A DNA stretch of 64,000 bases from Orobanche coerulescens (lineage: Eukaryota > Streptophyta > Magnoliopsida > Lamiales > Orobanchaceae): the NCBI GenBank assembly GCA_033398695.1, contig CM065815.1, forward strand, positions 97,368,501-97,432,500, read 5' to 3'. Positions 2,182 to 60,454 of this stretch are shown here, one piece after another. How positions within the stretch are numbered: position 1 is the stretch's first letter; each line of letters opens with the position of its first letter. The notes beneath the pieces are model-generated. The model had not been told where the DNA came from. It did not search any database and saw only the letters and a list, made by a program, of their open reading frames with translations. The translations under genes and the position numbers were made by a program.

Positions 2182-2203
2182 TCCTGGGTTTATAAACCCA
2201 GGA
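2182..2203. promoter_or_regulatory. TATA-like box inside a 22-bp perfect palindrome (solo LTR)
   Basis: Two 11-bp arms meet at the centre of TTTATAAA; each arm reads TCCTGGGTTTA on its own strand. The palindrome directly follows the cluster of TTACGTACGTAA motifs in element orientation, the expected place for the core promoter of the LTR. Promoter function is inferred. Confidence 0.6.
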
Positions 2204-2204
2204 C

Positions 2205-2366
2205 GCGTTAGGTACGTTAGCCACCACTTGCTAACGTACGTAAGCTGTGTTACGTACGTAAGCCGTAAGGTCCTTACGTACGTAGCCAAAAAGGCAGAAA
2301 TGCCTGTACCATTTTGCACAGTCCGTTACGTACGTAACCAAAGGTGTGTTACGTACGTAACATCCC
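2205..2366 (-). promoter_or_regulatory. Palindrome cluster TTACGTACGTAA (solo LTR)
   Basis: At least five full or near-full copies of the 12-bp palindrome TTACGTACGTAA lie in about 160 bp (for example near 2236, 2250, 2274, 2324, 2349). The cluster ends next to the TATA-like palindrome. The motif contains TACGTA, an ACGT core of the kind plant bZIP proteins bind; that link is inference. Confidence 0.7.
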
Positions 2367-3504
2367 TTCCTGGGGAGTACATGCCTGAATTAGACAAGAG
2401 ATGGGGGGTACCGAAAAGAGTCGAAATACAACGGTGAACAATTCATGATGGTATGAACGTAAAGGATTCGAGGCGACGAATGAAAGTGTTAAAAGAAAAC
2501 ATATTCCCGACTACCCAAAGGTTCGGGAAAACAACAACCATCGTAATTACCCCAAATCTTTGGGAAAATTACGTAACGGCCCAAAACATCTGAAATGAAC
2601 GATACATGGTCGAAACACCAAACAAAAACTCACAAAACGCATATTAACATGAGATGGATCCTTGGCAACCCCGAAATGGTGGTTCCGAAGGACGATTTAC
2701 GAGAATACCCGAAATAGCGACGAAAACAACATGAAACACCGAATCGGGTAAAACGAGTCCGAAACAAGCTCGAACGACAAAAAGTCCAATATTAAATATC
2801 CTCAAAATGTCAATACGTTTACAAGCGAGTTGCCAAAACGAAAATACACCAAAATGAGAATATTCAGAGAAAGGAAAAATGCGGATATTACAGTTTAGAG
2901 AGCGGCGTAAGGACATCCATATGGTGTTCATTGATCTAGAGAAGGCTTATGATAGCATTCTGCGCGATGTTATTTGGAGGAGCCTAGAAGAGAGGATGGT
3001 GTCGTTGCCGTTCGTTAGGGCGATCCAAGACATGTACTCCCAAGGTAGGACTTGCGTTTGGACCCCAACTGGTGACACCCAGTATTTCCCGGTTGAGATA
3101 GGACTACACTAGGGATCGGCACTAAGCCCTCTTCTCTTCGCTCTAATCCTTGACGTCATTTCACGGGGGATACAGGATGGCGTCCCGTGGTGCATGCTTT
3201 TTGCTGACGACATTGTGTTAGTGGCGGAGTCGAGGAGCGAGGTGAACGCGAAGTTGGAGCTATGGAGGTCTAAGTTAGAATCCCATGGCTTGCGTGTGAG
3301 CCGGTCTAAGACCGAGTATCTCTGGTGTAACTTTAGTGGTGAGGCCAACGAGGAAGAAGTAGAGGTAATGATTGCAGATCAGATCGTACCCCGTACGGAT
3401 AAGTTCAAGTATTTGGGTTTGATCATTCAGAAGGAAGGTGAGTGTGAAGATGATGTCACTAATCGTATCAAGGCGGGGTGGCTTAGGTGGAGAGCAGCGA
3501 CTGG

Positions 3505-3971
3505 TAGGGGTGTTCAAAACCGGATATCCGGACTTTCGGATATCTGAAATTTCGAATATCCGAAAGTTCGGATAGTAGATTTTGATATCCGATATCCGTA
3601 TCCGAAATTTCGGATACGGATATCGGATATCAAAATCTCCGGAAAAAATATGAATTTTATTCAGATATCCTTATATTCGAAAAAAAATATTCGGATTTGG
3701 ATATCGGATATCCGAATATCCGAAAAAAACTTCGGATATGGATATCGGATATCCGAATATCCGAATACCTTCTATTATTTAAAATATAAAAAAATAAAAA
3801 ATTTAGGATTTTTCGGATATTTCGGATATCCGAATATTCGATTTTTCTAAAAAGTACTATCCGATATCCGAATCCGAAGTTCCGGATATTCGAACTTCGG
3901 ATATCCGGAACTTCGGATTTTCGAATATTTCGGATCGGATATCGGATATCGGATATTTTTTAACATCCCTA
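3505..3971. mobile_element. hAT-type MITE, 467 bp, rich in GGATATCC
   Basis: The ends TAGGGGTGTTCAAAA and (reverse complement) TAGGGATGTTAAAAA are imperfect terminal inverted repeats. A perfect 8-bp target duplication GCGACTGG lies at 3497-3504 and 3972-3979, which fits hAT-family transposition. The interior consists largely of repeated CGGATATCCGAA and TCGGATATCC units, so it can fold on itself at many places. It has no coding capacity. It interrupts the LINE ORF exactly between the codons around 3504 and 3980. Confidence 0.92.
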
Positions 3972-4503
3972 GCGACTGGGGTCCTGTGCGTCAAGAAAGT
4001 CCCTCTTAAGTTGAAGGGTAAATTCTATAGAGCGGCAATCAGACTTGCAATGTTGTATGGCTCCGAATGTTGGGCGATGAAGAAGTCGCTTGAGAGCAAG
4101 TTGGAAGCGGCTGAAATGAGAATGTTACGTTGGTCGTATGGTCGCACAATGTTGGATAGAATCTCGAATGGGGTTTTCAGGATCGCTCTTGAAGTGGCGC
4201 CCATTTCAGCGAAAGTTAGGGAAGGGAGATTGAGATGGTTTGGAAACGTCCGCAGGAGGCAGGCTTCTGCTCCGGTGAGGAGGGTCGAGAGTTTATTGGT
4301 TGCCGGGGAGAGGAGGAGAGGCAGACCGAGGAGGACGTGGGAGGAGCAGCTGAGATTAGATTTGAAGGCCTTAAACCTTTTCGAGACCATGACTGTTGAT
4401 AGGTGCTCTTGGAGGCACCAGATCAGAGTTGTGGATTCATTTGTAGGGAGCGGTGTTGTAGTTGAGAGCGTCAGGATTGAGTTGTCTCGGTTAGCTTTGA
4501 CCT

Positions 4504-18433: not shown

Positions 18434-20397
18434 TCCTTGGTCCGCAGTTGGTAGCAATGGTATGAAGAGAGACCTCTGCTGTATAATTCACATTTATAGC
18501 TGTTTCTATCCAGAGTCTTCTACAATTTCAGCGATTACGTTCTCTTACAATACCCGAATACCGCAGTTCAAAACAATGGCAAAATTCTTGATGTCCAAAT
18601 TCGATTATGTTATAAAACTCTTGGTGAAACCTAATAATTGTAAAAATGAATATATAAAATTATCAAGTATTTAAAAAAATAAAGTTTTTACAAGTTTTTT
18701 CTCTCGAAATATTTTTATATATTTAATATAGTGATTATATAAATTTATTTATTTATTCATTGATTTTATTTTATGTTTTATATTTTGAGTGAATACTTTG
18801 TATAAATCTACTATGTATTATTCTCAAAAATTATAGTATATTCTTTCTATAATTAACTAAAAATACTTTTATTTTATTCGAACTTATCAATTCTTTTAAT
18901 GAAATTTACCAATAATGTATTCCACAATTTACTAAAAATAGTAATGTTATACCAAAATATTTATGCCATTGTTCTGTATTCTATTTAAGAAAAAATGTGT
19001 ATATAATTTAATTTTATAAATTAGTATTATTATAAATTAATATTAGTTGAATTTACTTACCATAATAATGTTTTTCAATATAAATTTTGTAGATAAAAAA
19101 ATAGATTTATAATATGTCATAATATTTGAATATTTAGTTAATAAAAATAATGATTGAACTCCAATTTTAAGTATAATTAATGTTTGGCCCGTGCTATCAC
19201 GGGTGTAATATAAAGTGGAGTCAAATATATCATCTAAAAATACTTCTTTTTATACGATATTTTTCATTTGGTTGTTTTTTGAGTTATCATCGCTGCAAAC
19301 CAACATCTTCGTATTTTTTGGGTTAGTCACACGAGAAGAAATCACTGTAGACCAGATTCTTAAGGTATAGCACATCGAGAAATTAAAAGAGAGAGAGAGA
19401 GATGAGAGAGAGAAGAGAGAGACTCTCTTTGACTCTTATTTATAATCATCCAATATGAGATCATAAGAGACCATTGTTCCGCTAAATTTGAACGGTATTT
19501 GAAGACTCAGGCGGTGTCAGTGTTATCTTGGGAATTAATACCTTATCCATCTATGAGAATTTTATATTTGGGGACGTGTGCGATAAAAAAAATCATAATC
19601 ACAAGTCTAGTCCCATTACATAATCTCATAAAGTGGTCTGTATTTCTTAATAGCATCACATGATGAGTCCATACTTCAAATGCTTATGGAGTATGATTTG
19701 TGTTGAGTCATTGCATCTGCAAGAACTTCGTATTCTTGCGAGCAACACTAATTTTATAAAGGTGCATCATGCCGAAAAAATTGACATTGTTAAAAGAGAA
19801 AGCTTTAGGCCAAATAATCATTTATTATTGTCAGTTTATATTTATCATTCATATAAGCAATGATCAAATCTTTATAGCATCCATATATACGCCCTTGAAC
19901 CATCATTCTCTTCCAATGTGCATTTTTTATCATTATGTGAATCCTCTCGCTCTGGAATATATCGTTTTTGTTAGGAACATAATATAAATCTTAATCTTTT
20001 ATAATCTAAAATGTGATAAATTAAATTAAAAAAATTCTAACCTAAAAAAATGTAGAAAAAATACTTTCCAAACTTGTATCTAATTCTTATAAGTATAAAC
20101 AGGCTTCTCACAGAGCCGTACCTAGGCAACTTCATCGTCCACTCATTTTCGTCATATTGAGATCCCTGATCACAATCAATTTGAGTGCTACCACGGTAAA
20201 ATGATGTTTTAAGGTTTACTGAGCAATGGTATGAAAAATAGCGTAAGAATGATCGGACATTTTCAAGGGATTTATATAATCTGGTAAATTTAATATAGGT
20301 AATATAGATATGACATGATCTCGTTAATATATATATAATATAAATACGTTAATTAGAGTAACATCTTGTCATAAATTGAGATCATTAACGTATTGAT
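18434..20397. other. Intergenic AT-rich DNA upstream of RPAP3
   Basis: This should contain the RPAP3 5' UTR and promoter just right of 18433. I see no other gene. A (GA)n run occupies about 19385-19425. A perfect 6-bp-stem hairpin CCCGTGCTATCACGGG at 19188-19203 resembles the motif often seen at the ends of plant Helitron-like repeats, but I cannot define an element. Confidence 0.5.
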
Positions 20398-21232
20398 TGT
20401 TGGTGCAAGATTCGGTATTCGTGCTATTGTCCGGAAGCGTAAATAAAAGTGCGGAAAATAAATCGACACAAGATGTATAGAGGTTCGGCCAAAAGTGCCT
20501 ACGTCCTCTCTCCGTATCTTTTCCTATAAGATAAAGATCAACCTCTGCACCTCTCTTCTATCGATCGAGGGATTACCATTACAATTCTCGTCTTCTATCG
20601 GTCCGAGATAAATCGTTCACACACTTCTCTTTTTGTCGGTCCAAGTTAAACCGTTTTCCTTTTCTATCGGACAAGGAATCAACCTATCTAGCTTTCTATG
20701 GGTACTAGACAAACCTCACGTTGATATATATTGCGATTCTAATAATGTCGGATCCTTGATCCTAATAACACCGAATCGAATCTTATCCTTTCTTTTTCCT
20801 CTCGTGTATATTTTTGTGTATAACACTCAAACACTTATCAATCTAAGCTCAAGTACAACAGCAATAATGATTACAATGGTATCTCAAGTATATATAATTT
20901 GCTCAAGGTTGTTGTGTGGTTTGATACCAAATGGTTTGGTATTTATAGCCATTTTCTTCCAACTAGCCGTTACTGCCAGTCTCACTTAGCATGCGCTAGC
21001 CTCTTCCTTGAGCGTGCGATATTGCCTGTTGCATATGTTAATATTTGCTGTTTACGTACGTTATATGTTGATCAGTTCAGTCTAGTGGCTACTGCCTCTA
21101 TCAGTTAGCGTACGCTAACATTTTCCTGTAGCGTGCGCTAATATTAAGTCATTGCTTGCGTCATATATCCATTTAAAGACATCTGAGAATAAAATTAAAA
21201 ACACCATTCATCACATAATCCGACGCAAAATA
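20398..21232 (-). mobile_element. Element G: Ty1/copia-type LTR fragment
   Basis: It begins TGTTGGTGCAAGATTCGG. It contains GATGTATAGAGGTTCGGCC followed by TGCCTACGTCCTC, sequences I know from copia-type LTRs. It is cut at 21233 by the LTR of gypsy element F, so the far end is off-window. In minus orientation a palindrome cluster (20986-21146) is followed by a TATA-like box at 20939-20946. It may be part of a full element or a solo LTR. Confidence 0.6.
20986..21146 (-). promoter_or_regulatory. Palindrome cluster TTAGCGTACGCTAA (element G)
   Basis: It contains a perfect 16-bp palindrome GTTAGCGTACGCTAAC at 21104-21119 and degenerate relatives at 20985, 21011, 21052 and 21129. A TATA-like TATTTATA (20939-20946) lies about 40 bp beyond it in element orientation. 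The same motif occurs in the LTR of gypsy element A. Confidence 0.65.
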
Positions 21233-21797: not shown

Positions 21798-23805
21798 TGT
21801 AATATCCGTAATTTTTTTCCATTTTAAGCAGTTTCCATTTTGGTGTATGTCTATTTTTATCGACTCGCTTGTAACCGTTTCGACATTTTGAATCTACTTT
21901 ATTCTTGGAGTTTTTCCATTTGGATGAGTTTTGGTGATGTTTTCTCGTAATTTCATTTTATGACATGTTTTGCCGTATGAACGTTCGATTCTCGTAAAAC
22001 TCGTTCGTTTTTGTTGTTTCTTGACTTGTACAAGTTCGTATGGTTGAGTTGGTCATGTTGAAACTTTCGGTTTGTAAATCCGACGTCGTTTCGTGAGTTT
22101 CGGGCACTTGGGCCATTTTCGTAATTTCCTATAAATTTAGGGAAATTCATCTCCTTGTCGTATTTTGGATTCCTCGGTAGTTGGAAGTGCATTTACTTTC
22201 GAGCACTCAGCTTCATTGTTATGAATACCTCGTATTTACACTTTTAATTCTATCCTCGTGTTGTAGTTCGTCGTCGAATCGACTGTGCAGAATTGGTGTT
22301 TAGAATCGGGTTCATTACGTGCATAACGACGTTATGCATGATCCATAACGCACGTTATGACCCTTCACACCAAGACAGACATTTGGTTACGACGTTAACC
22401 AAAGGTTGGGTTACGACGTAACCATCATAACGCACGCGGCTTGTGTTAACGCACGTAACACTTATCGGCCGCTTTTAAACCTGACTCAACCTCAGTCAGT
22501 TTCTTTTCATCCTTCTTCGCCCCTTTTCGCGACGTGAGCGTTCTTGAGCACTTTTGGAGCGATTTTTCCAGAGCAATCCGTGGCTTTCCTCTAGAGATTT
22601 ACTATTGTGTACCAAGGGAGATTTATCTCCAACATTATCATCTTCCATCAGTCGAATCCAAGGTAATTCCTCAGGAACCCTAATTTTGACGAATTTGGGG
22701 GTTTTTCGGGATTCTAGGGTTTAGTTCCGAATTGTTCATCTATATATCGATATTCTTTACCGATTGTGATTATTGAGTGATTCTAAATCCAATTTCCTTG
22801 ATTCTAATCCGCGAATTATCAATACGGGGAGATTTTGCGTAAACCCTCGCCCGTATCGATTGAACGTCTATTGTCGTGATTTGTAATCGGGGTTTTGGGA
22901 GTATTCCTTTCGATTATTGATGTCCGTTGGGACTGAGTTATGCTAATTCTTCATTTAGGAACCGTCGTTTTCCATTCGGATCATCCGTAGTCATTTTTCA
23001 CTTCCGATTCTTCGAAGATGTCACAAAGGCAAGTACTTTACATTTGTTTACATGTTCTAGTATTTGAATTATGGCTATATGTGGTTGTTGTGGGAGGATA
23101 TGTGTATGTTCACCTAGGGCCGGTCCGACGGGGCCTCTAGGGATACGTATTGCCGTGAGTGTGCGTATCGTGAACTGTGGTTAGCCACCCAGGGATGTCC
23201 GACGGGGCTCTGTGGGGTACGGTGGCCGTGAGTCTCGTACCAACGTTTAACTTTGAATTGTGATTTGTTGGAGATAATGTGTTTTGTGATTGTACATTGT
23301 AAATATTCCGGAATATTAAATGCTTTCTAAAATGATTTTTGGCGCATATATTCATCTGATTAGAATGTAGTTCAAATGGATTGTACTTGCACTAGCAGTT
23401 GTCGCTAACCCCAATACTTTTTGTATTTCAGGTATTGATCGTGGGGACAAGCGAGCACTCGAGCCGTATGAGGATGATGGGCAAGCATGATATTGTCCAG
23501 TAGTCGATTCTTGGTGTTTTGTTCTGTTGATTATGGTTGATGTATTGTTTTGGGATTTTTATATTATAAAATTGATTTAAGTACTCGAGTACTTCCCGTT
23601 TGAATTGTTAATGTCGTGTTCCCGCTTTGGGAAATGGATTTAATGTCAGGTGTTAATTGTCGGTTGTATTCTTATTATGAATTGTCGTCTCATTGATGGT
23701 TGTTTGTCTTTGTCGAATGTCTTGTTTAGTACGTTAGCCTGGTGGATTCCACAGTGTGGGGTCCACGGCGCTGTAATATGCCCTGAATGTCTTGGGGGTG
23801 TTACA
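21798..23805 (+). repeat. Element E 5' LTR
   Basis: It is 2008 bp and nearly identical to 28734-30751 except in the palindrome cluster (22313-22462). A TATA-like GCTTTTAAAC lies at 22471-22480. The last 60 bp repeat a TGTAATATGCCC/GTGTTACA theme common to all gypsy LTRs in this window. Confidence 0.93.
22313..22462 (+). promoter_or_regulatory. Palindrome cluster, 5' LTR of E
   Basis: It holds CATAACGACGTTATG, CATAACGCACGTTATG, GGTTACGACGTTAACC and GGTTACGACGTAACC, upstream of the TATA-like box at 22471. Three of these have lost the T present in CGTACG of the 3' LTR. Confidence 0.7.
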
Positions 23806-23810
23806 GAATA

Positions 23811-23827
23811 TGGTATCAGAGCTTAGG
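23811..23827 (+). other. Primer binding site, initiator tRNA-Met (E)
   Basis: TGGTATCAGAGCTTAGG starts 5 bp after the 5' LTR. TGGTATCAGAGC is complementary to the 3' end of initiator tRNA-Met. Confidence 0.9.
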
Positions 23828-23897
23828 TTTATGGATACCTAGGTTGTCGGTTATTTGGGTCTAGTTAAGTGTCGTTTTTGGGACAGTATCACTGCTA

Positions 23898-24960
23898 TGC
23901 CATCATCTCAGTACGCCGGTGCTCGTAAGTTTTTCCTAACTTAACTCGTTTCACCGTTCTGTTCTATTCCTGTCTTAGTATCTTGTTGCGTTTTGCGTTT
24001 GAATTGTACTTACCCATTATTTCTTCAGAATTCCTGCTGGTAGAGGACGCGGACGCGGACGCGGTAGGGGACGTGGCGCAGCCGGTGGGGCGGCCATGTC
24101 CGATCACTCGGGAACTGATTCGGCGGTGCCCTCTTTGTCGAACAGTGTTCCCCCTAGTTCTGGAGGTCAGCAGGACTACCGCTAGCTCCGTAATGCACAT
24201 GAGAATGTTGGAGTGGCTAATATTTTGCGGCAAGTAGCGAACCAGATGACGCTACCGACTCAGCCGTTCTAGTCGGCCAAGCTAATGCCAACCTGGGCCC
24301 GCCACCGGATCCGGCAATGATAAGTTGCTTCAGACGTGATTCGTATGCGTCCTCCGCAGCTTTGATGGTGCTTCCGACCCTTCCTACCGGGAGAATTGGC
24401 TATTCGAGATGGAGAAAGTGTTTGAGGTCGCTAATTGTTCGAGGAGAGGAAAGTACCCATTGCTCAAGCTTCTCGCCAAAGAGGCAAGAACGTGGTGGCA
24501 AGCGGTGAAACCGCGGACTGGCAACCACGTGGGCGAGTTTCGGGATCCGATGGAAGATGAATTTTGCCCATGGCCGGTGAAAGAGGAGAATCCGAGCCTT
24601 CTTTGAGGCTAAGCCCCAAGATGTTCCTATTTCTCAAGCTATCAAGGACTACAATCAACAAATGCATTATGTGAGGAACCAAGTCCGAGATGAGCTAGAT
24701 AAGATCCGCCACTTTGATATGCGGATGAAACCGAGGGTGCGCCACTACATGTCTGGTCTGGGGTGCACGACTTTGAAAGAATATCAGAATAAGGCGATGG
24801 CTTATGAGATGTCGTTTTCTGCGACAGAGATGGCAACCGAAGGAAAGAAACGTAAAACCACGGCCGGGCTGGGAGGCAAGTCAGAGGGTATCCGAAGGCT
24901 CGGCCTGGTTCGCGAGTCTCGGAGTCGGGCCGCCATCGGGGCGAGGAAACGGTTCTAGGT
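23898..24960 (+). pseudogene. Element E gag, degenerate
   Basis: The likely start ATGCCATCATCTCAG at 23898 is followed ten codons on by a splice-like GTAAG (23926). A Gly-Arg-rich stretch follows a TTCTTCAG acceptor-like site near 24025-24060. Several stop codons interrupt the capsid region (for example near 24182 and 24270). Gag residues are again readable from 24662 (RNQVRDELDKIRHFDMRMKP), and a frameshift near 24900-24960 leads into the zinc-knuckle frame. Confidence 0.75.
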
Positions 24961-27391
24961 CTGCTTCTGCTGGTTCTGTTTGTGGTCCTACGTGCTTCAA
25001 CTGTAGTCGTCCGGGCCACATGATGAGTGAGTGTGATAGGCCTCCGATTCAGTGTCTTGCTTGTGGACGGATGGGTCATCATGCTAAGTTCTGTACGAAT
25101 GCAGCTCGAGCTCCAATTACTCAGATATCAGCCCCAGCTGCGGGAGAGCCGAGTGTTAATCAGGCACCGACAGTTCCTCAGCCGCAGCAGAGTTTTGGTA
25201 GAGGTCGAGGACGTGGACAACCTTCTAGAGGGGGAGCTTCTAGTGCGGGGTCTGTTCCGCCCCGGGTTTATGAGATGAGACGAGCAGGAGACCCATACGC
25301 GACGGTGGCTACAGGTACCGTTCACATCCTTGACCATCCTGTTTCCGTATTATTCGATTCTGGTGCTACGCATTCTTTCATATCTATGGATTGTGTGCAT
25401 CGTCTGCATGTTGATTGCTTGGTTGCATGTGAACCATTTGTTGTTAAACTGCCTAGTGGGGATAGCATCGTGGGGGATCGTGAGATTAGGGATTTTCCAA
25501 TGAGTATCGCGGGGAGGGTTTGGCCTTCCAATCTGATTGCGGTAGATATTAGAGATGAGGATCTGATTCTGGGTGAGGATTGGCTGGACCGTCATGGGGC
25601 AATCATGAATTATAGAACGAGGACTGTTTCAATGTTAGCCTCTAACGGTACCGAGCATTCTTTTGTGGGGCATAAGCGGAGTAGCCAGAGACTTTTGATC
25701 AGCGCCTTGAGGGCGGTGAGACTTCTTCGAGGAGATTGCATGGGCTATTGGTGTTACGCTTTGAGATCGGAAGAAGGGGGAGTCGAGCTCTCGTCTATTC
25801 CGGTAGTGTGTGAGTATCCTGATGTTTTTCCAGACGAGTTGCCGGGTTTGCCGCCGGACCGAGAAGTTGAGTTTACCGTCGATTTAGAGCCGGGTGCAGC
25901 CCCTATCTCTAAGACGCCATACCGTATGGCGCCCGCCGAGATGCTGGAGCTGAAGAAACAGTTGGGAGAGTTGCTAGACATGGGGTATATTCGACCGAGT
26001 GCCTCACCTTGGGGCGCACCGGTCCTGTTTGTGAAGAAGAAGGATGGGTCACTTCGTTTGTGTATCGACTACCGAGAGTTGAACAAAGTGACCATCAAAA
26101 ACAAGTATCCGCTTCCGAGGATTGATGGCTTGTTTGATCAGTTGCAAGGGGAAACCGTGTTTTCGAAGATTGATTTGAGATCGGGGTATTATCAGCTCCG
26201 AGTGAAGGATATCGATATTCCGAAGACGGCCTTTCGGACGAGGTACGGACACTACGAGTTTGTGGTTTTGCCTTTTGGGCTAACCAACGCACCAGCCGTG
26301 TTCATGCAGCTTATAAACAAAGTGTTTATCGAGTACCTCGATAAGTGTGTAGTCGTTTTTATCGACGACATCCTGATTTACTCGAGGAGCGAGGAGGAGC
26401 ACGCCCGTCATTTGCATATCGTATTAGATATTTTGAGAACTCAGCATCTTTTTGCGAAGTTCTCAAAGTGCGAGTTTTGGTTACGGGAGGCTATGTTTCT
26501 CGGTCATGTGATCTCGGCCGAGGGTGTTCGTGTAGACCCACATAAGGTAGAGGCAGTGTTGGATTGGGCGCCGCCCAAGAACGTGAAGGAGATTCGCAGT
26601 TTTCTGGGATTAGCCGGGTATTACCGTAGATTCATCGAGGGGTTCTCTAAGCTCGCTCGACCGCTGACTCAGTTGTTACAGAAGTCAGAGAAGTTTGTGT
26701 GGACCGATGAGAGGCAGAATAGTTTTGAGGAGTTGAAGAAGCGGTTGACGACCGCTCCTGTTTTGGCTTTACCGAGTGGTAATGATGGTTTCTCAGTTTA
26801 TAATGATGCTTCGGGCCAAGGGCTCGAATGCGTACTTATGCAGCACGGGAGGACGATTGCATATGCTTCCCGTCAGTTGAAACCGTATGAGTTGAATTAC
26901 CCTACGCACGATCTTGAGTTGGCCGCAGTTGTATTTGCATTGAAGATTTGGCGTCATTACTTGTATGGCTCGTCGTGTCAGATTTTCACCGATCACAAGA
27001 GCCTGAAGTGCATTTTTACGCAGAAAGAGCTTAATATGAGACAGAGGAGATGGTTGGAGTTGATTAAGGACTACGACCTCGAGATTCTATATCATCCGGG
27101 TAAGGCAAATGTGGTGGCAGATGCCTTGAGCCGGAAATCGGTATCGCTTCGGGCGCTTGAGCTACTTACGGCCCAGTCGGGACTTCAGCGAGAGTTTACG
27201 ATGTTGAGCATTGAGGTTGTACTGCCAGAGAGTTCCGGGCAGTTGCGTACTCTTGAGATTTCTTCATCTCTGGTCGATGACATTAAATCAGGACAGTTGG
27301 AGGACCCGATGTTTATTCAGCTTCGAGAGAGTGTAGGGAAGGGGAAAGCCCCAGGATTTGTTATTCATGAGGACGGAGTGTTGAGATTCTG
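24960..27391 (+). CDS. Element E zinc knuckles, protease, RT and RNase H (open)
   Basis: This is about 810 codons without a stop. In order it has two CCHC knuckles ([14 protein letters not shown] and [14 protein letters not shown]); an aspartic protease with [14 protein letters not shown] with [32 protein letters not shown] and the catalytic [10 protein letters not shown]; and RNase H with [13 protein letters not shown] and [13 protein letters not shown]. The RT is typical of Ty3/gypsy. A TGA at 27390-27392 replaces an arginine codon and cuts translation before integrase. In the intact family this would be one gag-pol polyprotein processed by the protease. Confidence 0.9.
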
Positions 27392-27392
27392 A

Positions 27393-37512: not shown

Positions 37513-39072
37513 CTAAGCCGATGGCCCGGGTGGTGGTGATGGTGGTCTGATGCCGAAATGCTGCTGAATGCGTGCCATCTGCTCGTCTGATCTGTCGAGA
37601 CGATCGTTTACCTTTTTAAGTTCACTTTTGATAACCTCCTGGTCGTCTCTGATGCAGCCAATCGCCTCCCATATACGACGGAGAAGGGACTGGGACTGGG
37701 GATGACGGCTCGGATGGCGGGATTTGGTGGTCTCTCGTATAGGGCTCTCGTCGTCACCTCCGTCAGTCAGAGAATGTGCCTCGTCGTCGCGCTGTGCGTC
37801 CTCCTCGAATTCGATACCCATTCGGTTACAAGTAGCACGCCTCAATTTGTCCCGGTCTTTAATTACTGTGCGGTCGGCATTTGAGAAGTCAACATCCGCC
37901 TGCTTGAGTATCAACGTGATCAACCGGGGATAAGGAATGGAATGCTTGGGGCTTTTATTCCTTAGGAAATCACGCATGTGATTGTATATAATACTCCCAT
38001 AATTCAATCCCTGTATAGCACCTAGCACATGCACCATTTTATCCAAAAAGTATAAATCCCCAACTCGTACTTCATTTTTACTACTCAAACGAGGAAGAAT
38101 ATTTATGCCGAGAAGATATAAAATGAGGCGATGCTGGTCGGAGAAGGATAAGGTCCCAATCTTCACTCCATCCTTTCGGGAAGGAGTGTACTGGATGTCA
38201 AACCGCGCCATGGCACTACTAGTGTTCCACACCGGTCCTTCTGGGGGATTGAAGGATTTTCTGAAATTTACTTTCTCCCCCTCGTCCGGAGTGTGGAGCG
38301 AGTGATTTATCGAGCTCTCGGTGATTACCACTGGTGTCCCTCTAACTGTGCTTCGTATAGCGTAGTCATCTTTGCGTTTTGCCTCCACGTTGGCGTAGAA
38401 TTCACGGACCAAATCTCCGTAGTAATGATCAGGGAGCTTCAACGCATTCTCCCAATGTAGGTGACTGAAGAATTGAGATAGGTTGAATTTATCTTCAACC
38501 TCTTGTGCGATATCTCTCTCGACCAAAAGTTTGGAATGAGCTCGTTGCTCAAACCATTCCGCATTTTCAGCACTTGTAAAGCGTGTAGCATCAAAGGTCC
38601 CTGTGGTATGCTCTGATTGAGAATTGTCGCTCTCGGTGTCAGAAGATGATGCTAAAGGGCTGGCTGCCCGGCGCTTGCGAGTCCTGGTTGTCCTGCACAA
38701 TTATCACAAGAAAAATTCATTTAAGCATTTCATCGGACACCTTGTAATCGTGATTTAACAAGCTTCCAAATTCATCAATTTATGGACAAAATCTAACCCC
38801 CTGGTACATGAAAGCTTCAAAAACTATACGATTAGCAATAGAACAATACTAATCTAAGCAAAACACCACGAATTTACAAACTTTCATCATGTAAAATTTT
38901 ATAAACCAAAACCATCAAAATTTTGACATAATTTCATTTCAAGTTATCAAAATCCTTACATATAATCCAACAAATGTGTTTAATCACGTGAATAAACGTA
39001 GCCACATATCCATAAACACAATGAGAATCGAATTCGCAGCAAATATTGAAGAATTTTGAAGTAAACTTACAT
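37513..39072 (-). CDS. Element D third ORF (plant transposon protein domain), spliced, ~393 aa
   Basis: The main exon 38692-37513 is fully open. It encodes a basic start (TTRTRKRRAAS), a conserved middle (residues ~40-300, with FFSHLHWENALKLPDHYYGD and VHVLGAIQGLNYGSIIYNHM) of the type found in a third ORF of Athila/Tat elements (putative plant transposon protein, PF20167-like), a predicted coiled coil (~335-375) and a proline-rich end. No good ATG opens this exon. A GTAAGT donor after 39071 and a GTGCAG acceptor at 38693 would remove a 378-bp intron and join AT to G, making the start codon. It lies after integrase, where Athila elements carry their envelope-like ORF. I see no signal peptide or membrane segment, so envelope function is not supported. 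Confidence 0.75.
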
Positions 39073-39250: not shown

Positions 39251-39408
39251 GTGTTTAAAAACCCATCTGCTCACACACGATGCTGGAAACGGTTCATTTT
39301 GCGCCGTGTTATGCGCCGTGTCGTACAGTGATATTTGATGGAAACTAGACACGGCGCTGGAAACGGTCCAGATTAGCGCCGTGTTGTTCGTCGTGTCATA
39401 CAGTGATT
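39251..39408 (-). promoter_or_regulatory. Internal copy of the LTR inverted-repeat cluster plus TATA-like box (D)
   Basis: It holds AAACGGTTCATTTTGCGCCG (39287), AAACGGTCCAGATTAGCGCC (39361) and the 10-bp inverted pair ACACGGCGCT (39349) / AGCGCCGTGT (39375). In element orientation a TATA-like TTTTTAAAC (39264-39251) follows, then about 180 bp of leader to the splice donor at 39071. It resembles the LTR arrangement, so I infer an internal promoter for the third ORF. Confidence 0.5.
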
Positions 39409-39508: not shown

Positions 39509-40222
39509 TTAGTCGTGCGACGGATCTTCAAGGGTTATGCTCTCTCCGTGAGGAATTTTCTGATTTTCAAAATAAGGCTTTACCATGTGTCCGTTCACCT
39601 GAAATGACTCTTTGGTTTGAGGATTTATCAGTCTAATTACTCCATATGGAAATACTTCCTCAATCTCGAAGGGTCCCGTCCAGCGTGATTTTAGCTTACC
39701 TGGAAATAATCGCAAACGAGAATTAAATAAAAGTACTTTCGTACCTGGTTCAAGGTGCTTGAGGGTAAGCTTCCGGTCATGAAGTCTCTTGACTTTGTCT
39801 TTGTAAATCAGAGAGTTCTCGTATGCTTCGTTTCTTAACTCGTCTAATTCAGATATTTGTAGCAGTCTTTCCTGTCCAGCTTCTTTCAATTCCATTGAAA
39901 CAACCTTAATTGCCCAATAAGCTTTATGTTCGATTTCAACTGGAAGGTGACAAGTTTTTCCATAGACTAGACGGTAGGGGCTCATTCCCAATGGACTTTT
40001 GTATGCTGTTCGGTATGCCCAAAGTGCATCGACCAATTTTTCAGCCCAATCTTTTCGAGTTGGGTGCACAATTTTTTCCAGGATCCCTTTTATTTGTCGG
40101 TTGCTTGTTTCAGCCTGACCCGACGTTTGTGGATGGTAGGGAGTTGCAATTTTGTGATTTATGCCATTTTTGGCCATAAGCTTGTCAAATAACTTGTTGC
40201 AGAAGTGGGATCCCCCATCACT
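39509..40222 (-). pseudogene. Element D integrase C-terminal part, cut by element A
   Basis: The frame starts at the insertion point with SDGGSHFCNKLFDKLM (second catalytic Asp), then YHPQTSGQAETSNRQIKGIL (catalytic Glu), ALWAYRTAYKSPLGMSPYRL and KSRWTGPFEIEEVFPYGVI. This is a typical Ty3/gypsy integrase core and C-terminal domain of Athila type. It ends at a normal stop at 39509. Element A begins at 40223. TCACT (40218-40222) should be the left copy of its duplication, with the partner outside the window. Confidence 0.9.
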
Positions 40223-43117
40223 TGTAACACCCCAAAAGGCGGCTATTACAGTGCCGTGGACCCCACACTGGGACCCACCAGGCAATATCCAAAACAGATT
40301 AAATAAATATTATTTGTGATACCGAACCACAATGAATAGTCATTACTCCGATTAGGAGTTTATTAAAAATATGGCCAATGGCCTTATAATACACAAGATC
40401 CGAACAACAAGTATAAACCATATGGAGATGGAAAATACTTCAAATGTCAATACAACCAGATAGTAATTTAAATGAAGCAGAAAATAAAATAACATAACAC
40501 GGTTTAACATAACTGGACAACAAATAATGTGGGCCCCCCGAACTAGTATCCTTCGAACCCTTCGCCGTCAACATGCTCTTCCCGTGCCTTGCCTTTGCCT
40601 CGACCTAAAATACAATACAAGTATTTTGCCCATAAGACAAGGTCAGATACACATGATAATTAATTCTTCCGACATTATACAATTCACATATATAGAATTC
40701 AAGGAAAAACATCCCGACTATTAATCATACCCCTCGGGCGTATGAAACAATCAGTCAAAAACCGTCGAACACATCCAATCATACATGGACTATGAACGAT
40801 TAACAATATAGCTCAAGATGGACATCACAGTACGCCCAATCCGGAAATGTGTCCGTGTACATGTCCACCCCGTATACGGAATCCAGAATATACGTGTGAC
40901 GATGTACCTAATTAGCCTCACGAACTACGTCTCGTGTGCACAGTCCAATGCGGAATAACCTCCACGCATGACTATATATGTGCCTGGCTAAAAATCCTAC
41001 ACAATAACCAATCGGAACGCAGATATGATTCCGGATATGTCACGATACAACATGACAACGAATTCAATAAATCACACATCCGATTAAGGATCAAGAAAAC
41101 TCACCGAAGTGAAAATAAAGACCAACGAGATCAACGATTCAAAGCGACGTACTTGGGAATGAAACCCCATGATGAAACGGAATAACGTCAAGGATAATGT
41201 CAAATCACGACAAGCATTTCATAAACATTTCATACACATGAAATGTATAAACATCACAAGAATCTAATCATCATTATAACCAAGCAAGATAACTTGCCTC
41301 AATACGGAGACGAGAATAGTCTTCTTCTTGTTGAAACGAACGAACGGCCCTCGACTAATGTTGTTTTTCTCGAACAATCAACCATAAACGAAATGTATTT
41401 TACTCAATAACATATTCGTATAATTATCACTATAGGATTAGTAAGACGACATCCTACACTCCTTTAGAATAGTTTGATATCTCGAAATATCGAAGCCTTA
41501 TGCCAAGAGTTCTTTTAACATCATTACAACCATAAAAATCGGTTTGCAATATTTTTACCGAATGTTCACATGGTTCATCATAAATAAGAATTCTATCAAG
41601 GGTATGTTTAATAACCAATTATGATGTTAAGATCATCTTATGATGATTAAACTTTCCAAAACATTAAAATGTTGAAGGAACAAAATCTGCACATTTATGA
41701 TCATTCTCCTCTCATCTAAATTGAATATTAAGCTTACAACAAGGTTATTAGTTATGAGATTACACCATATTCATGAAGGTTATCAAAATCTTTCTTTACA
41801 AGGCTGGAAGATCCATTAACATTATGATGAATTCACCATTTATCTAGTATGATGATCAAAACATTCTAAGTTCTCAACACATTAGATTAATGAAAAGTTG
41901 TTGTTGTTGGTTTCACAAATATCCTTAACCATTCAAAATCTTGCTGAGCTAAACATAAGGAGAATATGATTCTTAAGAAATCTGAGCAAGAAGACATCCT
42001 TCTACTTCTAACATGGCTAAGTTCTTCCCAAGGTAAGTGAAAACTTAAAATGGTGTTTAATCACTTTATGATAACAACTCTATTAGTTAAATCCAACTAT
42101 GGTGAAGTTAACTGATTCAAAGGTGTTCTACTGAGCTATTCGTCCAGCAAGATGAGCATGATAGTTACAACATGGTTAAAATCACTATATCATCAAGAAC
42201 ACATCCATCTCAAACCCTTATTTATCATATTCATCAAAAGTGTTAAAAAGGTTGGATTAAAACTATGTTTTACTTGATTAATCTAACTCTAGGTGAAGTA
42301 TAATTCGTTAATACATCAACATATGAAAATGATACAGAGAAGAAAGTACACCTACCTCCAGAAACGAAGAACAACCTCAATGCTATGAGAAAATATACTC
42401 CAAGCTCAAGAACACCTCCTAATCTCCAAGGAAATGAGCTCCACTCCAAGATTTAAGGCTTAGAAGCAAGTTGGGGGAGGTTGATATCGGTTTGGGAGTG
42501 CAGAGGGACGATATATGGAGAGAGAATCGGTTTGGAGTTGTAAAGAAATGAAAAACAGGCTGGTCCTATAAATAGACTGTGCAGACTTAGCGCACGCTAA
42601 CGGTAAGCTTTAGCGTACGCTAACACACTTACGTACGCTAACTGGTTAATATTACGTACGTAAGCGGCTTACAGTGGCTACTGTATTGAATTCGCAGGTC
42701 GTTAGCGCACGCTAATGAAAAAGGGGTTATGCACACTAATAAAAGTTGACTCTGGCCGACATGACAACTCAGACATTACTCACATGCATGCCAACGGCTA
42801 AGAAGTTCACATGCTGAAGTCAACGGTTGCCAGATTCTCTCTTAGCGTACGCAACAGAGGAAACATTACGCACGCTAAGGCACAAGATTAACGTACATTA
42901 ATCATGCTACGTAGCATACGCTACGTCAACAGAAATTTTAAAAAAATGCATCTCTCTAATTAACATTGAATCATCGAGTATGAAATGAAATAACAACGAT
43001 ATGAAGTTCAAATCTATAATACCTCAACATAATACTAAATGCAGCGATTCATGATAATCAGATTATCCGAATAATATAATGACAGGTAAAAATGAAAAAT
43101 TACAGTCGGATATTACA
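40223..43117 (-). mobile_element. Element A 3' LTR (Ty3/gypsy)
   Basis: It is 2895 bp, with termini TGTAACACCCC and CGGATATTACA. A pyrimidine tract (43118-43131, the PPT on the minus strand) and the AGTTTCGTCCTCGAAACT motif adjoin it. It contains the palindrome cluster 42587-42928 and, in minus orientation, a TATA-like box at 42576-42567. Confidence 0.9.
42587..42928 (-). promoter_or_regulatory. Palindrome cluster TTAGCGTACGCTAA / TTACGTACGTAA (A)
   Basis: Eight or more related motifs occur, for example TTAGCGCACGCTAAC (42587), TTTAGCGTACGCTAACA (42611), TTACGTACGTAAGC (42652), GTTAGCGCACGCTAAT (42701) and GCTACGTAGC (42906). The TATA-like TATAAATAG at 42567-42576 lies 11 bp beyond it in element orientation. 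Confidence 0.7.
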
Positions 43118-51084: not shown

Positions 51085-53329
51085 TGTAACACCCCAATAC
51101 ACAAATGGGACATTACACGCCGTAGAACCCTCATGAGGTCTACCAGGCTGACACTTGACACATAAACCACAATATAATCCCAAATGATGCATTCAAAAAG
51201 TAACTAAGGCCGTGGCCTCGGCCAAAACATTTTAACGGAGTACATGAATATAAGATAAATACCAATTCATTGCCCACGCAGGGGACTTAAACCAAGTTTC
51301 AAAGTAAACAGTCTAACTCCGGTACTCGACAAATGCAATGACACAACATAAAAATACTGACTCGAGCCACATCATCAAGCCATCCCATCCTTTACGTGCG
51401 TGCCCCGTGCCAGCTCCTCAACTCTCCCGGTACCTGAAATGCATAAGACGCATTTCCCCCATTTAAGGGGTTAGCATTCGAATAGCTAGTGCAAGTACAC
51501 AATTACACAACATTATATACAAAACGGTTTTAAACAATCATCTCAACCATAAGTCATTTGCCACATATATATTCCGGAATACTACATTGGCAATCAAAAA
51601 CAGTTTCCAAACATCACGATGTCACAAAATCACAACTGGTATCCCGTGGCCGTACCCCTTAGTATCGACCCCCAGACATCCCGTCGAACGCTCCGGGTGG
51701 GATACCACTTCCGCGGCCGTACCCCTTAGTATCGACCCCGGACATCCCGTCGGACACTCCGGTGGAAGTTCAATCACACACGCACCCCTACCACTTCCAC
51801 GGCCGTACCCTTAGTATCGACCCCGGACATCCCGTCGGACACTCCGGGTGGAAGGAACACAACTCACGCACCCAAAAATCACCATTTATCATTCATTTCG
51901 AAAATCACAACATACATAACGAAATGTAATACATGTACTTGCCTTGAACACGATGAAACAAGGGAAACAACGAAGGAATAGGTTTTGGTCCGAACAATCC
52001 TCCCAAATCCGCTCCTAGCACAACAACGGTATACAACAAGTCTCAATAATGCGGAAAGGTAAGAATTAATCCTAATTCTACCCGTTGGGACAATTCATCG
52101 GACACTACGCGTGCGTAAGGAAATGAAATTGGTCAATGGTGCAATAACGGGATTTCATCCCAACCAATAACAAGAAAACCAAGGGTCACGAGTATACTAT
52201 CAAAATCTAACAACAACATCGGTTAATTCGGATTAAAACACAAGATCACCACCAAACCCTCCCCAAAATCATACTAGGGTCAAAGGAGTTCTTACCTCTT
52301 GAAGATTCAAGCCCTATGATCCGAAGAACACGCGCTAGATCCACAATCCGAGCTACACGATCGAAGGAAGATGAAGAAAAACACACAATCAAATGGTAGA
52401 TGGAGGAAAATCCCCCTCTCAACCCTCTCTCTCTCGCGTACGGTGGAAGGAAGGAAGAAATGAGTGAATTCGCTGAATAAAAACGCATATATAGCGCTGA
52501 CCGCGTTGTGTGCCGCTTTCACTGAATCGTGCCGCGGCACAGCCAAAATCGCGCCTGATGATCGCCGACCGCTCGTTGCCGCGGCTCATTCGAATTGTGC
52601 CACGGCTCGACTCGGCATGTGCCGCAGATCGCCGGGATCGTGCCGCGGCACGCAGTCTGATCGTTTTGGCCGGCAAGTGCCACACGGTGTGCCGCGGCCT
52701 GCACAAGTGTGCCGCGCACCGACTTCATGTGCCGCGGCGCACAATCCTTGTGCCGCGGCACACGGTACAGTTTGCTCGGACAACAGCTGGGTGATGTGTG
52801 TGCCGCGGCGCACAGTCCATGTGCCGCGGCCCACACCCCCCCTCGGGTCCCAAAATGACGAAAAATGATCCGGAAAGAGAATAAAAGCAATAGGGATCGA
52901 TATTTGGGCAACGATAACACGAAATTGAAGTACGGAATCCAAAAACGATCTGAGGTACACAACCAGAGTCGAACAAGGCACAAATTCCCTAAACTTCTGG
53001 GAAATTACAAAAACGGCCCAAACATCCGAAAAATCACGACACAACGTCGGATTAACAATCCGAAACTCACAACATGCTCTAATCAAACACACGAGCTCAT
53101 GGAAGTAAGAAAATGATGAAATCGAACGAGTTTAACAAGAATCGAATACACAAGAGACAAAATATATCACAAGATTAAATTACGTAAAAACATTATCGAG
53201 ACCCATCTAAACGGAAAAACTCCAAGCACAAAATAGGTTCGGAATTACAAAACAGTGCCAAGCGAGTTGTCCGAAACGAATACGCACCAAAAATAGAAAT
53301 TACTAAAAATAGAAAACGCGGATATTACA
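51085..53329 (-). repeat. Element C 3' LTR
   Basis: It is 2245 bp and nearly identical to 58229-60454 outside the palindrome cluster. It carries three tandem units with GGCCGTACCCCTTAGTATCG (near 51650, 51717 and 51801). A TATA-like CTATATATGC lies at 52493-52484 on the minus strand. Confidence 0.95.
52497..52835 (-). promoter_or_regulatory. Palindrome cluster GTGCCGCGGCAC, 3' LTR of C
   Basis: More than ten GCCGCGG cores occur, several within the 12-bp palindrome GTGCCGCGGCAC (for example 52529, 52639, 52749). The cluster abuts the TATA-like CTATATATGC. The Arg/Ala/Pro-rich reading frames here are composition artefacts. Confidence 0.7.
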
Positions 53330-53341
53330 TTATCTCCCCCT
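53330..53341 (-). other. Polypurine tract of C
   Basis: AGGGGGAGATAA on the minus strand lies directly before the 3' LTR. The AAGTTTCGGGACGAAACTTA motif just upstream is also found in E and F. Confidence 0.9.
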
Positions 53342-53365
53342 AAAAAATAAGTTTCGTCCCGAAAC

Positions 53366-57720: not shown

Positions 57721-58124
57721 CTCAAGCCACTTACTAGCCTCCTCTTAGGTGTCGGGGCGGATTCTCGCGTCCACCCCGAGCTATCTCGAGTAAGTTGCGC
57801 TACCAATCGGCCAAGTACGGCAAGAGCTCTGGCCGGCATTATTACCCGACGGCACTGAGTGAGAGGCTGAGTCCGCAGAGGACTGAGAAAGTGAGCCCTC
57901 CTCATTATCAGCACCCCGACCACGGCCTCGGCCGCATCCCCTAGCCGGTCTACCACGACCTCTCAACATACTGAAGGAAAATAAGAAAAGGACAATATCA
58001 GGAAGATTCACAATTCACAAAGTTGGCAACACAAGTCACGATTCCGAACAGCGCAAGAAAACGAATTACAGAGATATAAGAGTTCGCGGAGACTTACAGC
58101 CACGGGTCGCACGAAAAGACGGTA
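57714..58124 (-). pseudogene. Element C gag N-terminus with mini-exon
   Basis: A start ATGCTACCGTCTTTTCG (about 58124) opens ten codons that run into GTAAGT. About 130 bp later TTTTCCTTCAG precedes a Gly-Arg-rich segment (GRGRPARGCGRGRGRG). Stops near 57780 and 57750 break the link to the main frame. Element E has the same layout. Confidence 0.65.
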
Positions 58125-58207
58125 GCATGATGATATTAGGCTCAACGACTGACTCTAATGACGCAACTGACAGACCCAAAATTCACCGACAGCCTAGGTA
58201 TTCAAAA

Positions 58208-58224
58208 CCTATGCTCTGATACCA
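58208..58224 (-). other. Primer binding site, initiator tRNA-Met (C)
   Basis: The minus strand reads TGGTATCAGAGCATAGG, four bases after the 5' LTR. Confidence 0.9.
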
Positions 58225-58228
58225 TAAA

Positions 58229-60454
58229 TGTAACACCCCAATACACAAATGGGACATTACACGCCGTAGAACCCTCATGAGGTCTACCAGGCTGACACTT
58301 GACACATAAACCACAATATAATCCCAAATGATGCATTCAAAAAGTAAGTAAGGCCATGGCCTCGGCCAAAACATTTTAACGGAGTACATGAATATAAGAT
58401 AAATACCAATTCATTGCCCACGCAGGGGACTTAAACCAAGTTTCAAAGTAAACAGTCTAACTCCGGTACTCGACAAATGCAATGACACAACATAAAAATA
58501 CTGACTCGAGCCACATCATCAAGCCATCCCATCCTTTACGTGCGTGCCCCGTGCCAGCTCCTCAGCTCTCCCGGTACCTGAAATGCATAAGACACATTTC
58601 CCCCATTTAAGGGGTTAGCATTCGAATAGTTAGTGCAAGTACACAATTACACAACATTATATACAAAACGGTTTTAAACAATCATCTCAACCATAAGTAA
58701 TTTGCCACATATATTCCGGAATACTACATTGGCAATCAAAAACAGTTTCCAAACATCACGATGTCACAAAATCACAACTGGTATCCCGTGGCCGTACCCC
58801 TTAGTATCGACCCCCAAACATCCCGTCGAACGCTCCGGGTGGGATACCACTTCCACGGCCGTACCCCTTAGTATCGACCCCCAGACATCCCGTCGGACAC
58901 TCCGGGTGGAAGTTCAATCACACACGCACCCCAGTCCACTTCCACGGCCGTACCCCTTAGTATCGACCCCCAGACATCCCGTCGGACACTCCGGGTGGAA
59001 GGAACACAACTCACGCACCCAAAAATCACCATTTATCATTCATTTCGAAAATCACAACATACATAACGAAATGTAATACATGTACTTGCCTTGAACACGA
59101 TGAAACAAGGGAAACAACGAAGGAATAGGTTTTGGTCCGAACAATCCTCCCAAATCCGCTCCTAGCACAACAACGGTATACAACAAGTCTCAATAATGCG
59201 GAAAGGTAAGAATTAATCCTAATTCTACCCGTTGGGACAATTCATCGGACACTACGCGTGCGTAAGGAAATGAAATTGGTCAATGGTGCAATAACGGGAT
59301 TTCATCCCAACCAATAACAAGAAAACCAAGGGTCACGAGTATACTATCAAAATCTAACAACAACATCGGTTAATTCGGATTAAAACACAAGATCACCACC
59401 AAACCCTCCCCAAAATCATACTAGGGTCAAAGGAGTTCTTACCTCTTGAAGATTCAAGCCCTATGATCCGAAGAACACGCGCTAGATCCACAATCCGAGC
59501 TACACGATCGAAGAAAGATGAAGAAAAACACACAATCAAATGGTAGATGGAGGAAAAACCCCCTCTCAACCCTCTCTCTCTCGCGTACGGTGGAAGGAAG
59601 GAAAAAATGAGTGAATTCGCTGAATAAAAACGCAGATATAGCGCCGCGTTGTGCAGCAGCCGCGGCTCACCAATCGTGCCGCGCACAGGCCAAAATCGCG
59701 CCTGATCGGCCGACCGCTCGTTGCCGCGGCTCATTCAAGTGTGCCGCGGCTCGACTGCATGTGCCGCAGATCGCCGATCAGGCCGCGGCACGCTGCTGAT
59801 CGGTTTTGGCCGCAAGTGCCACACGGTGTGCTGCGGCCTGCATAAGTGTGCCGCGGATCGACTGTGCCGCGGCGCACAATCCTTGTGCCGCGGCACACGG
59901 ATGCTTTTCTGACAACACTGGTGATGTGTGCTTGGCGCAGTCCCTGTGCCGCGGCCCACACCCCCCCTCGGGTCCCAAAATGACGAAAAATGATCCGGAA
60001 AGAGAATAAAAGCAATAGGGATCGATATTTGGGCAACGATAACACGAAATTGAAGTACGGAATCCAAAAACGATCTGAGGTACACAACCAGAGTCGAACA
60101 AGGCACAAATTCCCTAAACTTCTGGGAAATTACAAAAACGGCCCAAACATCCGAAAAATCACGACACAACGTCGGATTAACAATCCGAAACTCACAACAT
60201 GCTCTAATCAAACATACGAGCTCATGGAAGTAAGAAAATGATGAAATCGAACGAGTTTAACGAAAATCGAATACACAAGAGACAAAATATATCACAAGAT
60301 GAAATTACGTAAAAACATTATCGAGACCCGTCTAAACGGAAAAACTCCAAGCACAAAATAGGTTCGAAATTACAAAACAGTGCCAAGCGAGTTGTCCGAA
60401 ACGAATACGCACCAAAAATAGAAATTACTAAAAATAGAAAACGCGGATATTACA
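58229..60454 (-). repeat. Element C 5' LTR
   Basis: It is 2226 bp and pairs with 51085-53329. Three GGCCGTACCCCTTAGTATCG units lie near 58791, 58857 and 58945. The TATA-like box is altered here (CTATATCTGC, 59642-59633). Confidence 0.95.
59641..59960 (-). promoter_or_regulatory. Palindrome cluster GTGCCGCGGCAC, 5' LTR of C
   Basis: It is the same motif type as 52497-52835 but about 20 bp shorter, with many 1-8-bp differences confined to this block. Confidence 0.7.

What the first reader, a model, noticed from the sequence alone, without database searches (positions are those of the whole stretch)
2182..59960. A palindrome cluster just upstream of the TATA-like box in seven unrelated LTR families
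In the solo LTR, G, E, F, D, A and C, 130-340 bp of short self-complementary motifs lie next to a TATA-like box in element orientation. The spacing is about 10-170 bp. The motif differs by family: TTACGTACGTAA (solo LTR, E), TTAGCGTACGCTAA (G, A), GTGCCGCGGCAC (C), ACACGGCGC/GCGCCGTGT (F, D). Ty3 and Ty1 elements share the plan, although the rest of their LTRs is unrelated. I infer that these are the upstream activating elements of the LTR promoters, formed by local amplification of a palindromic binding site. They are also dense in CG, so they could be methylation targets or form cruciforms. I do not know of a formal description of this as a general LTR feature.
Basis: partly seen in the sequence, partly recalled or inferred. 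Interest (0 to 1): 0.8.

Follow-up and report, generated by a model that had tools for sequence, protein, structure and literature searches.

The report
Spaced palindrome arrays in retrotransposon promoters
Many retrotransposons in this genome, probably a plant's, carry rows of one short mirror-symmetric DNA word set about 23 letters apart just in front of their likely start-of-transcription signal, and the same layout recurs in elements of two superfamilies, which points to a shared DNA-binding protein that has not been identified.

Summary
The clusters are real, but not as described. Solo, E, F, A and C are one Ty3 chromovirus lineage, D another Ty3 type and G Ty1, so they are not seven unrelated families. 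Solo, G, E, A and C hold contiguous palindromes; F and D hold spaced half-sites. The main result is a shared layout: TAGCGYRCGCTA / TTACGTACGTAA palindromes 23-24 bp apart with unrelated spacers, and TATA-like DNA 19-27 bp past the last site in 17 of 26 arrays (orientation partly chosen by TATA). Pairs of the TAGCG form within 30 bp of each other occur 471,302 times (reversed control 0); 87 of the first 100 listed are 23 or 24 bp apart. A second motif, CAGTAGCCACTG, lies 29-32 bp from a palindrome in 98 of 100 listed places and occurs in Ty1 and Ty3 LTRs. I read the arrays as upstream promoter elements bound by a sequence-specific factor; binding is inferred. Palindromic repeats before TATA are already described for Sireviruses (PMC2829016). 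The shared spacing and motif across Ty1 and Ty3 did not turn up in my paper searches.

The parts
2182..2203 (-). TTTATAAA at the centre of a perfect 22-bp palindrome, solo chromovirus LTR
2204..2362 (-). solo LTR array, 6 sites of TTACGTACGTAA type, gaps 23,52,24,18,24, then 21 bp to TATA; LTR start about 2892
20396..21174 (-). G, Ty1-type LTR as matched by other copies
20985..21150 (-). G array, TAGCGYRCGCTA-type sites, gaps 23,54,42,23; TATAAATA (minus) at 20940-20947, 49 bp from last site
21083..21094 (.). second motif (TAGTGGCTACTG, one mismatch) in G, 23 and 31 bp from neighbouring palindromes
21798..23805 (+). E 5' LTR; its array (about 22314-22470) is strongly diverged from the 3' copy
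24777..27392 (+). E reading frame with RVT_1, RNase H and aspartic protease
28734..30751 (+). E 3' LTR, Ty3 chromovirus type
29257..29412 (+). E array (TAACGTACGTTA/TTACGTACGTAA), last gaps 43,24,18,23, then TTTTTAAA (about 29417-29424) at 23 bp
32375..32545 (-). F array: spaced half-sites ACGGCGC/GCGCCGT; LTR start about 33066
35476..35660 (-). D LTR array: spaced half-sites, TATAAAAG 179 bp downstream
37513..38700 (-). D ORF in env position, Pfam Transposase_32
39284..39393 (-). D internal array between integrase remnant and env-position ORF; TTTTTAAA follows (about 39255-39262)
39509..40309 (-). D integrase remnant (rve below Pfam cut-off)
42586..42925 (-). A array, 9 sites, gaps 23,23,23,140,51,23,18,23, then TATTTATA (about 42567-42574) at 23 bp; LTR start about 43117
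42672..42683 (.). second motif CAGTGGCTACTG in A, 20 and 31 bp from neighbouring palindromes
51085..53330 (-). C 3' LTR, Ty3 chromovirus type
52510..52835 (-). C 3' LTR array GTGCCGCGGCAC, 11 sites, gaps 20-22 and 47-50; TATATATG downstream
58229..60455 (-). C 5' LTR
59650..59955 (-). C 5' LTR array, 10 sites; no TATA by the pattern used

Best explanation
The clusters are upstream promoter arrays in the U3 part of LTRs. Each palindrome is a dyad-symmetric binding site, most likely for a protein dimer. Sites of the main class are set 23-24 bp apart and the TATA box usually lies about 22 bp past the last one, so bound dimers would stack against the basal transcription complex. Shown: motif, spacing, TATA position, second motif and their recurrence in Ty1 and Ty3 LTRs. 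Inferred: that a protein binds, that it activates transcription, and that one host factor or a small family serves many element families.
For: TTAGCGTACGCTAA: 30,429 places, 1 for the reversed word. TAGCGYRCGCTA pairs up to 30 bp apart: 471,302 against 0; first 100 listed: 54 at 23 bp, 33 at 24 bp, 12-42 possible. In 45 arrays of 12 flank-families, 120 of 266 neighbouring distances are 23 or 24 bp, and exact 23 occurs in 10 of 12 families. Of 157 pairs at 23 bp, 156 usable, 120 spacers are distinct; spacer columns carry 0.07 bit, palindrome columns about 1.45 (the latter inflated by how sites were found). Palindrome then TATAAA within 30 bp: 93,934 against 3; 71 of 100 listed are 19-24 bp centre to centre. 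TATA-like DNA lies 19-27 bp past the last site in 17 of 26 arrays. Half-sites match each other more than under within-array permutation: all four flank bases 0.367, maximum of 2000 permutations 0.333; first two bases 0.725, which the best permutation equals.
Against: No binding, transcript or methylation data. No known factor fits all variants: NAC sites (PMC4081100, passages) fit only TTACGT forms and their palindromic spacing is not met. F and D use spaced half-sites and C a 20-22 bp spacing, so one factor cannot serve all. 24 of the 53 loci were chosen because they hold the motif. Many arrays are related, and the 100-row listings come from the start of one contig, so counts are not independent. 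In one search the orientation of arrays without other evidence was set to the side where a TATA had been seen, the TATA pattern was broad, and sites could have three mismatches; 4 of 26 arrays have TATA at 42-49 bp, 2 at 83-100 bp, 3 none.
Confidence: 0.7

Rival explanations
1. Promoter modules (array, second motif, TATA region) were exchanged between Ty1 and Ty3 elements, so the shared layout is common descent kept by selection rather than independent gain. This concerns origin and can hold together with the best explanation.
For: With palindromes masked, Ty1 G and Ty3 L047 share GCAGTAGCCACT[A/G]GACTG at the same place (z 9.8-9.9). The Ty1 element of L021 and chromovirus-group L050 share TATAAATAGGACATT.CC (z 5.9). 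Gaps 23-18-23 before TATA (24 or 19 in places) recur in solo, E, A, L021, L035, L048 and L029. E and L036/L041/L047 LTRs are 86-91% identical on both sides without a match across the promoter module, so modules get replaced.
Against: 16 of 78 masked pairs exceed z 4, one of them two G copies and several within chromoviruses; G against A reaches only 2.4. The shared words could be further binding sites. No exchange junction was seen.
Confidence: 0.4
2. The palindromes act as RNA: hairpins in the transcribed U3 of the 3' LTR, for packaging or as templates for small RNAs, as proposed for maize Sireviruses.
For: Folding z-scores: solo -5.5, A -4.7, F -4.6, E -3.9, D internal -2.6. Idea in print for Sireviruses (passages of PMC10760457).
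Against: C -1.9, L012 -1.4, L021 -1.3, L006 -1.1, G -0.6: not common to the 10 arrays folded, while spacing and TATA position recur.
Confidence: 0.1
3. An element-encoded DNA-binding protein, not a host factor, binds the arrays, as VANC proteins do for VANDAL transposons (recalled).
For: Motif class differs among arrays: TAGCG/TTACG, CGGCCG, CCGCGG, CGGCGC.
Against: The same motif serves Ty1 and Ty3 elements. Extra ORFs were not searched for systematically.
Confidence: 0.12
4. Neutral tandem duplication of a short unit.
For: TTACGGCCGTAA units of L012 have similar spacers by eye.
Against: For the TAGCG/TTACG class, spacer identity within a locus is 0.29 against 0.27 between loci, while palindromes and spacing persist.
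Confidence: 0.05

Closest known systems
Sirevirus repeated motifs (RM boxes), Bousios et al. 2010, PMC2829016 (passages and section 9 read)
   Different: Called Sirevirus-specific, with a CGG-CCG core in all but one; here mostly Ty3 elements, other cores, and a 23-24 bp spacing with a TATA register that the passages I read do not mention.
[quoted passage not shown] 2016 (not held; known to me through passages of PMC10760457)
   Same: Clusters of palindromic motifs in the LTR cis-regulatory region.
   Different: Linked there to secondary structure and small RNAs; here strong folding is not common to the arrays tested.
Tnt1 and Tto1 repeated U3 activator boxes (recalled; symmetry of Tnt1 box I is mentioned in PMC2829016)
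   Same: Short repeated activator motifs in U3.
   Different: Not compared by sequence here.
NAC transcription-factor sites, PMC4081100 (passages read)
   Same: TTACGT and TACGT half-sites occur in part of the arrays.
   Different: TAGCG, CGGCCG and CCGCGG forms do not fit, nor does the palindromic spacing CGTN7-8ACG.

Membership tests
Sirevirus RM array | many copies of one palindromic motif in the LTR | tested here: met
   A 9 sites, C 11, L006 18, L035 18 (up to 3 mismatches); solo 6 and G 5 have fewer than eight
Sirevirus RM array | array shortly upstream of TATA | tested here: met
   5 of 11 arrays with independent orientation within 20 bp; 17 of 26 at 19-27 bp
Sirevirus RM array | CGG-CCG core | tested here: not met
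   cores CGYRCG, CGGCCG, CCGCGG, CGGCGC
Sirevirus RM array | carrier is a Sirevirus (Ty1) | tested here: not met
   E is Ty3 by RVT_1; C and A share SH3_Tf2-1 with it. The L020/L021 element is Ty1 by RVT_2; its Sirevirus likeness is recalled
Sirevirus RM array | second array upstream of env | tested here: inconclusive
   D alone: spaced half-sites at 39284-39393 before ORF 38700-37513; other copies could not be searched
Sirevirus RM array | array forms a CpG island | tested here: inconclusive
   array CpG o/e 0.93-1.83 in 15 arrays; above flanks in D and A, about equal in solo and E, below in F
NAC binding site | TTNCGT[G/A] half-site | tested here: inconclusive
   TTACGT forms fit, TAGCG forms do not
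NAC binding site | palindrome CGTN7-8ACG | tested here: not met
   CGT and ACG are adjacent in the sites
Ty3 chromovirus (E, C) | Ty3 polymerase domains | tested here: met
   E: RVT_1, RNase H; C: FIDDILIY motif and aspartic protease, gag, SH3_Tf2-1
Ty3 chromovirus (E, C) | chromodomain | tested here: inconclusive
   Chromo E about 2e-4 in both, below Pfam's cut-off
Ty1/copia (G) | tRNA-Met-type primer site (recalled) and copia gag | tested here: met
   ATTGGTAT[C/T]GGAG-type site beside L029, L030, L032 of 8 loci; PF14223 in L033, between two G LTR copies; no reverse transcriptase seen there

The most novel reading that the evidence does not exclude
Much of the LTR-element transcription in this genome runs through one shared promoter design: palindromes every 23-24 bp, a second motif CAGTAGCCACTGGACT 29-32 bp from a palindrome, and TATA in register, with nearly half a million palindrome pairs. 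Ty1 and Ty3 elements obtained it partly by swapping promoter modules, and one unidentified DNA-binding protein or small protein family reads it, so a single factor could set the activity of many retrotransposon families at once.
Probability: 0.35. Interest if true: 0.87.

Novelty: new variant of a known kind. Interest (0 to 1): 0.72.

Why it matters
If right, retrotransposon families of two superfamilies in one genome answer to the same DNA-binding factor through a strict spacing code. The factor becomes findable with a repeated 23-bp bait, joint amplification of such families would be explained, and the arrays offer a large natural data set on how binding-site spacing is kept while the DNA between sites drifts. 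Palindromic promoter arrays, described as Sirevirus-specific within Ty1, would extend to Ty3 elements.

Tried and rejected
Helical phasing: 20-21 bp in C fits two turns, 23-24 bp does not; dropped. CpG-island reading as a general rule. SPL/SBP factors (GTAC core; search listing only): CGCACG and CGCGCG variants lack GTAC. NAC: partial fit. Simple tandem duplication: rejected for the main class. Six 12-mers in papers: 4 papers of 5.39 million hold any, with non-plant titles. Paper searches on palindromes with Sirevirus, gypsy, chromovirus, U3 and promoter terms: in the listings and passages seen, none gives this spacing in Ty3 elements; subscription journals are mostly not held. Passages of PMC11963269 and PMC6911290 were seen and not used. 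A z-scan with 30 shuffles was swamped by AT repeats. A read of window 6100-8800 found no Pfam family. D arrays in other copies and the GTGCCGCGGCAC spacing genome-wide did not complete.
Full report
Setting. The window lies on contig C15 of an unnamed 3.65-Gb genome of 1279 contigs, probably a flowering plant (inference from size and elements). I checked the seven clusters and then followed the motif into a contiguous 200-kb stretch of contig C1 picked by coordinate alone, eight loci found with the G LTR, the interval between two G LTR copies and 20 loci chosen because they hold TTAGCGTACGCTAA (L001-L004 were chosen the same way).

What the elements are. E (21798-23805, 28734-30751) and C (51085-53330, 58229-60455) are LTR pairs. 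E has RVT_1, RNase H and protease; E, C and A have SH3_Tf2-1; E and C a chromodomain below Pfam's cut-off. E, A and C align internally. Solo, E, F and C align at the LTR start, A only with other copies; all five start TGTAATATCC. D is another Ty3 type with a Transposase_32 ORF and an integrase remnant (Athila likeness recalled). G is Ty1: 3 of 8 loci show a tRNA-Met-type primer site (type recalled) beside the LTR, and the interval between two G copies 6 kb apart, taken as one element, holds a copia gag.

Are the clusters more than chance? Solo, E 3'LTR, A and both C LTRs beat all 300 shuffles for repeated contiguous palindromes; G p=0.007, E 5'LTR p=0.027; F and D fail and instead show inverted half-sites at varying distances, D LTR weakly (p=0.017). 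In the cruder scan only solo, E and A stand out. D has two groups, one in the LTR and one between integrase remnant and env-position ORF; Sirevirus boxes also lie before ENV (PMC2829016).

The layout. The automatic search found 45 arrays of three or more sites, 17 of them in the unselected 200 kb. Three arrays of other motifs were dropped (two GGATATCC, one AAACCGGTTT) and L001-L004 and L025 left out as duplicates; F, D, L014 and the window's own G were not found by it. By flanks the 45 fall into 12 families, the largest (21 arrays) holding the chromoviruses. Of 266 neighbouring distances 84 are 23 bp and 36 are 24 bp; 23 bp occurs in 10 of 12 families. In 157 pairs at 23 bp, 156 usable, 120 spacers are distinct, and spacers in one locus are no more alike (0.29) than between loci (0.27). 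Genome-wide, TAGCGYRCGCTA pairs up to 30 bp apart occur 471,302 times, control 0; of the first 100 listed, 54 are at 23 and 33 at 24 bp. These come from the start of C1 and include related copies.

TATA. Of 11 arrays with independent orientation, 5 have a TATA-like word within 20 bp downstream. Of 26 arrays, 17 have one centred 19-27 bp past the last site, 4 at 42-49, 2 at 83 and 100, 3 none. In one search orientation was partly chosen by earlier TATA scans, the pattern was broad and many arrays are related. The strict word TATAAA follows a palindrome within 30 bp 93,934 times, control 3; 71 of 100 listed are 19-24 bp centre to centre. At random places in the sample a strict TATA lies within 40 bp on one given side in 6.7%. 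Near the promoter the gaps read 23-18-23 (24 or 19 in places) in solo, E, A, L021, L035, L048 and L029, and 51-53 then 23-24 in L006, L012, L018a, L033, L034, L047, L050 and L051. L021 lies in an LTR pair around an RVT_2 frame, thus Ty1.

Second motif. CAGTAGCCACTG, up to two mismatches, occurs 20 times within 120 bp of a palindrome and 17 times elsewhere in 328 kb. In seven G loci and the window's G it sits 23 and 31 bp from its neighbours; in the chromovirus-group loci L036, L047, L050 and L051 22-23 and 29-31 bp; in A 20 and 31; in L006 and L007 32 and 32; L033, L039 and L040 vary. Genome-wide it precedes a palindrome 8,746 times, control 0, 98 of 100 listed at 29-32 bp, with several unlike spacers. 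With palindromes masked, G and L047 share GCAGTAGCCACTRGACTG.

How it most likely works. Dyad-symmetric sites at one spacing, random spacers, half-sites that match each other more than permutation on two of three measures and a TATA at a preferred distance fit rows of bound dimers abutting the basal complex. That is inference. RNA folding is strong (z below -3.8) in 4 of 10 arrays, moderate in D internal and weak in 5. Whether the layout spread by exchange of promoter modules or by repeated selection is open. Replacement inside chromoviruses is indicated by E against L036, L041 and L047: 86-91% identity on both sides and no match between.

An unexplained result. The two LTRs of one insertion should start identical, yet the arrays differ at 20.7% of sites against 2.0% elsewhere in E, 18.4 against 1.2 in C, 4.1 against 0.8 and 9.9 against 1.9 in two C1 elements. 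Against a special role of the arrays: L017/L018 shows mainly gaps, L012/L013 no clear peak, the second C1 element has another hot stretch outside its array, and two pairs without a known array also have local peaks (76860, 172032). The E 5' array matches nothing above 90% among 40 scored candidates, while the 3' array has 39 others at 94-96%, so the 5' copy is the outlier. Alignment error in repeats adds to the figures. I do not know the cause.

Novelty. Palindromic arrays before TATA are known in Sireviruses and were called specific to them (PMC2829016, passages and section 9); a later paper says cis-regulatory arrays of transposons are sometimes palindromic (PMC10760457, passages). What did not turn up in my searches are the Ty3 carriers with this 23-24 bp spacing, the TATA register and the second motif across Ty1 and Ty3.

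Noticed in passing
window 3510-3980; L012:2735-3090: hAT-like insertion (by eye) with GGATATCC palindromic repeats, ends TAGGGGTGTT/AACATCCCTA and repeated flank GCGACTGG, in a reverse-transcriptase-like stretch; a similar array lies in L012.
   Followed up: partly
window 21798-30751 and 51085-60455; C1 elements at 50.013 and 50.095 Mb: Arrays of the two LTRs of one insertion differ about 5 to 15 times more than the rest of the LTR in four of six array-bearing pairs compared; cause unknown.
   Followed up: partly
window 2182-2203; L018 about 8763-8787; L033 about 2510; L029 TATA: TATA-like box at the centre of an inverted repeat in four LTR families, seen by eye and not tested against chance.
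   Followed up: no
window 39284-39393 and 32375-32545: D internal array and F (chromovirus) share CTGT[A/G]CGACACGGCGCAT, seen by eye.
   Followed up: no
window 43997-46007 and 60790-62796: Ty1-type LTR pair (2.0 kb) enclosing the C element; no CG palindrome array found in it.
   Followed up: no
window and L005-L024: Bulk CpG observed/expected is 0.96, high for transposon-rich plant DNA (expectation recalled).
   Followed up: no
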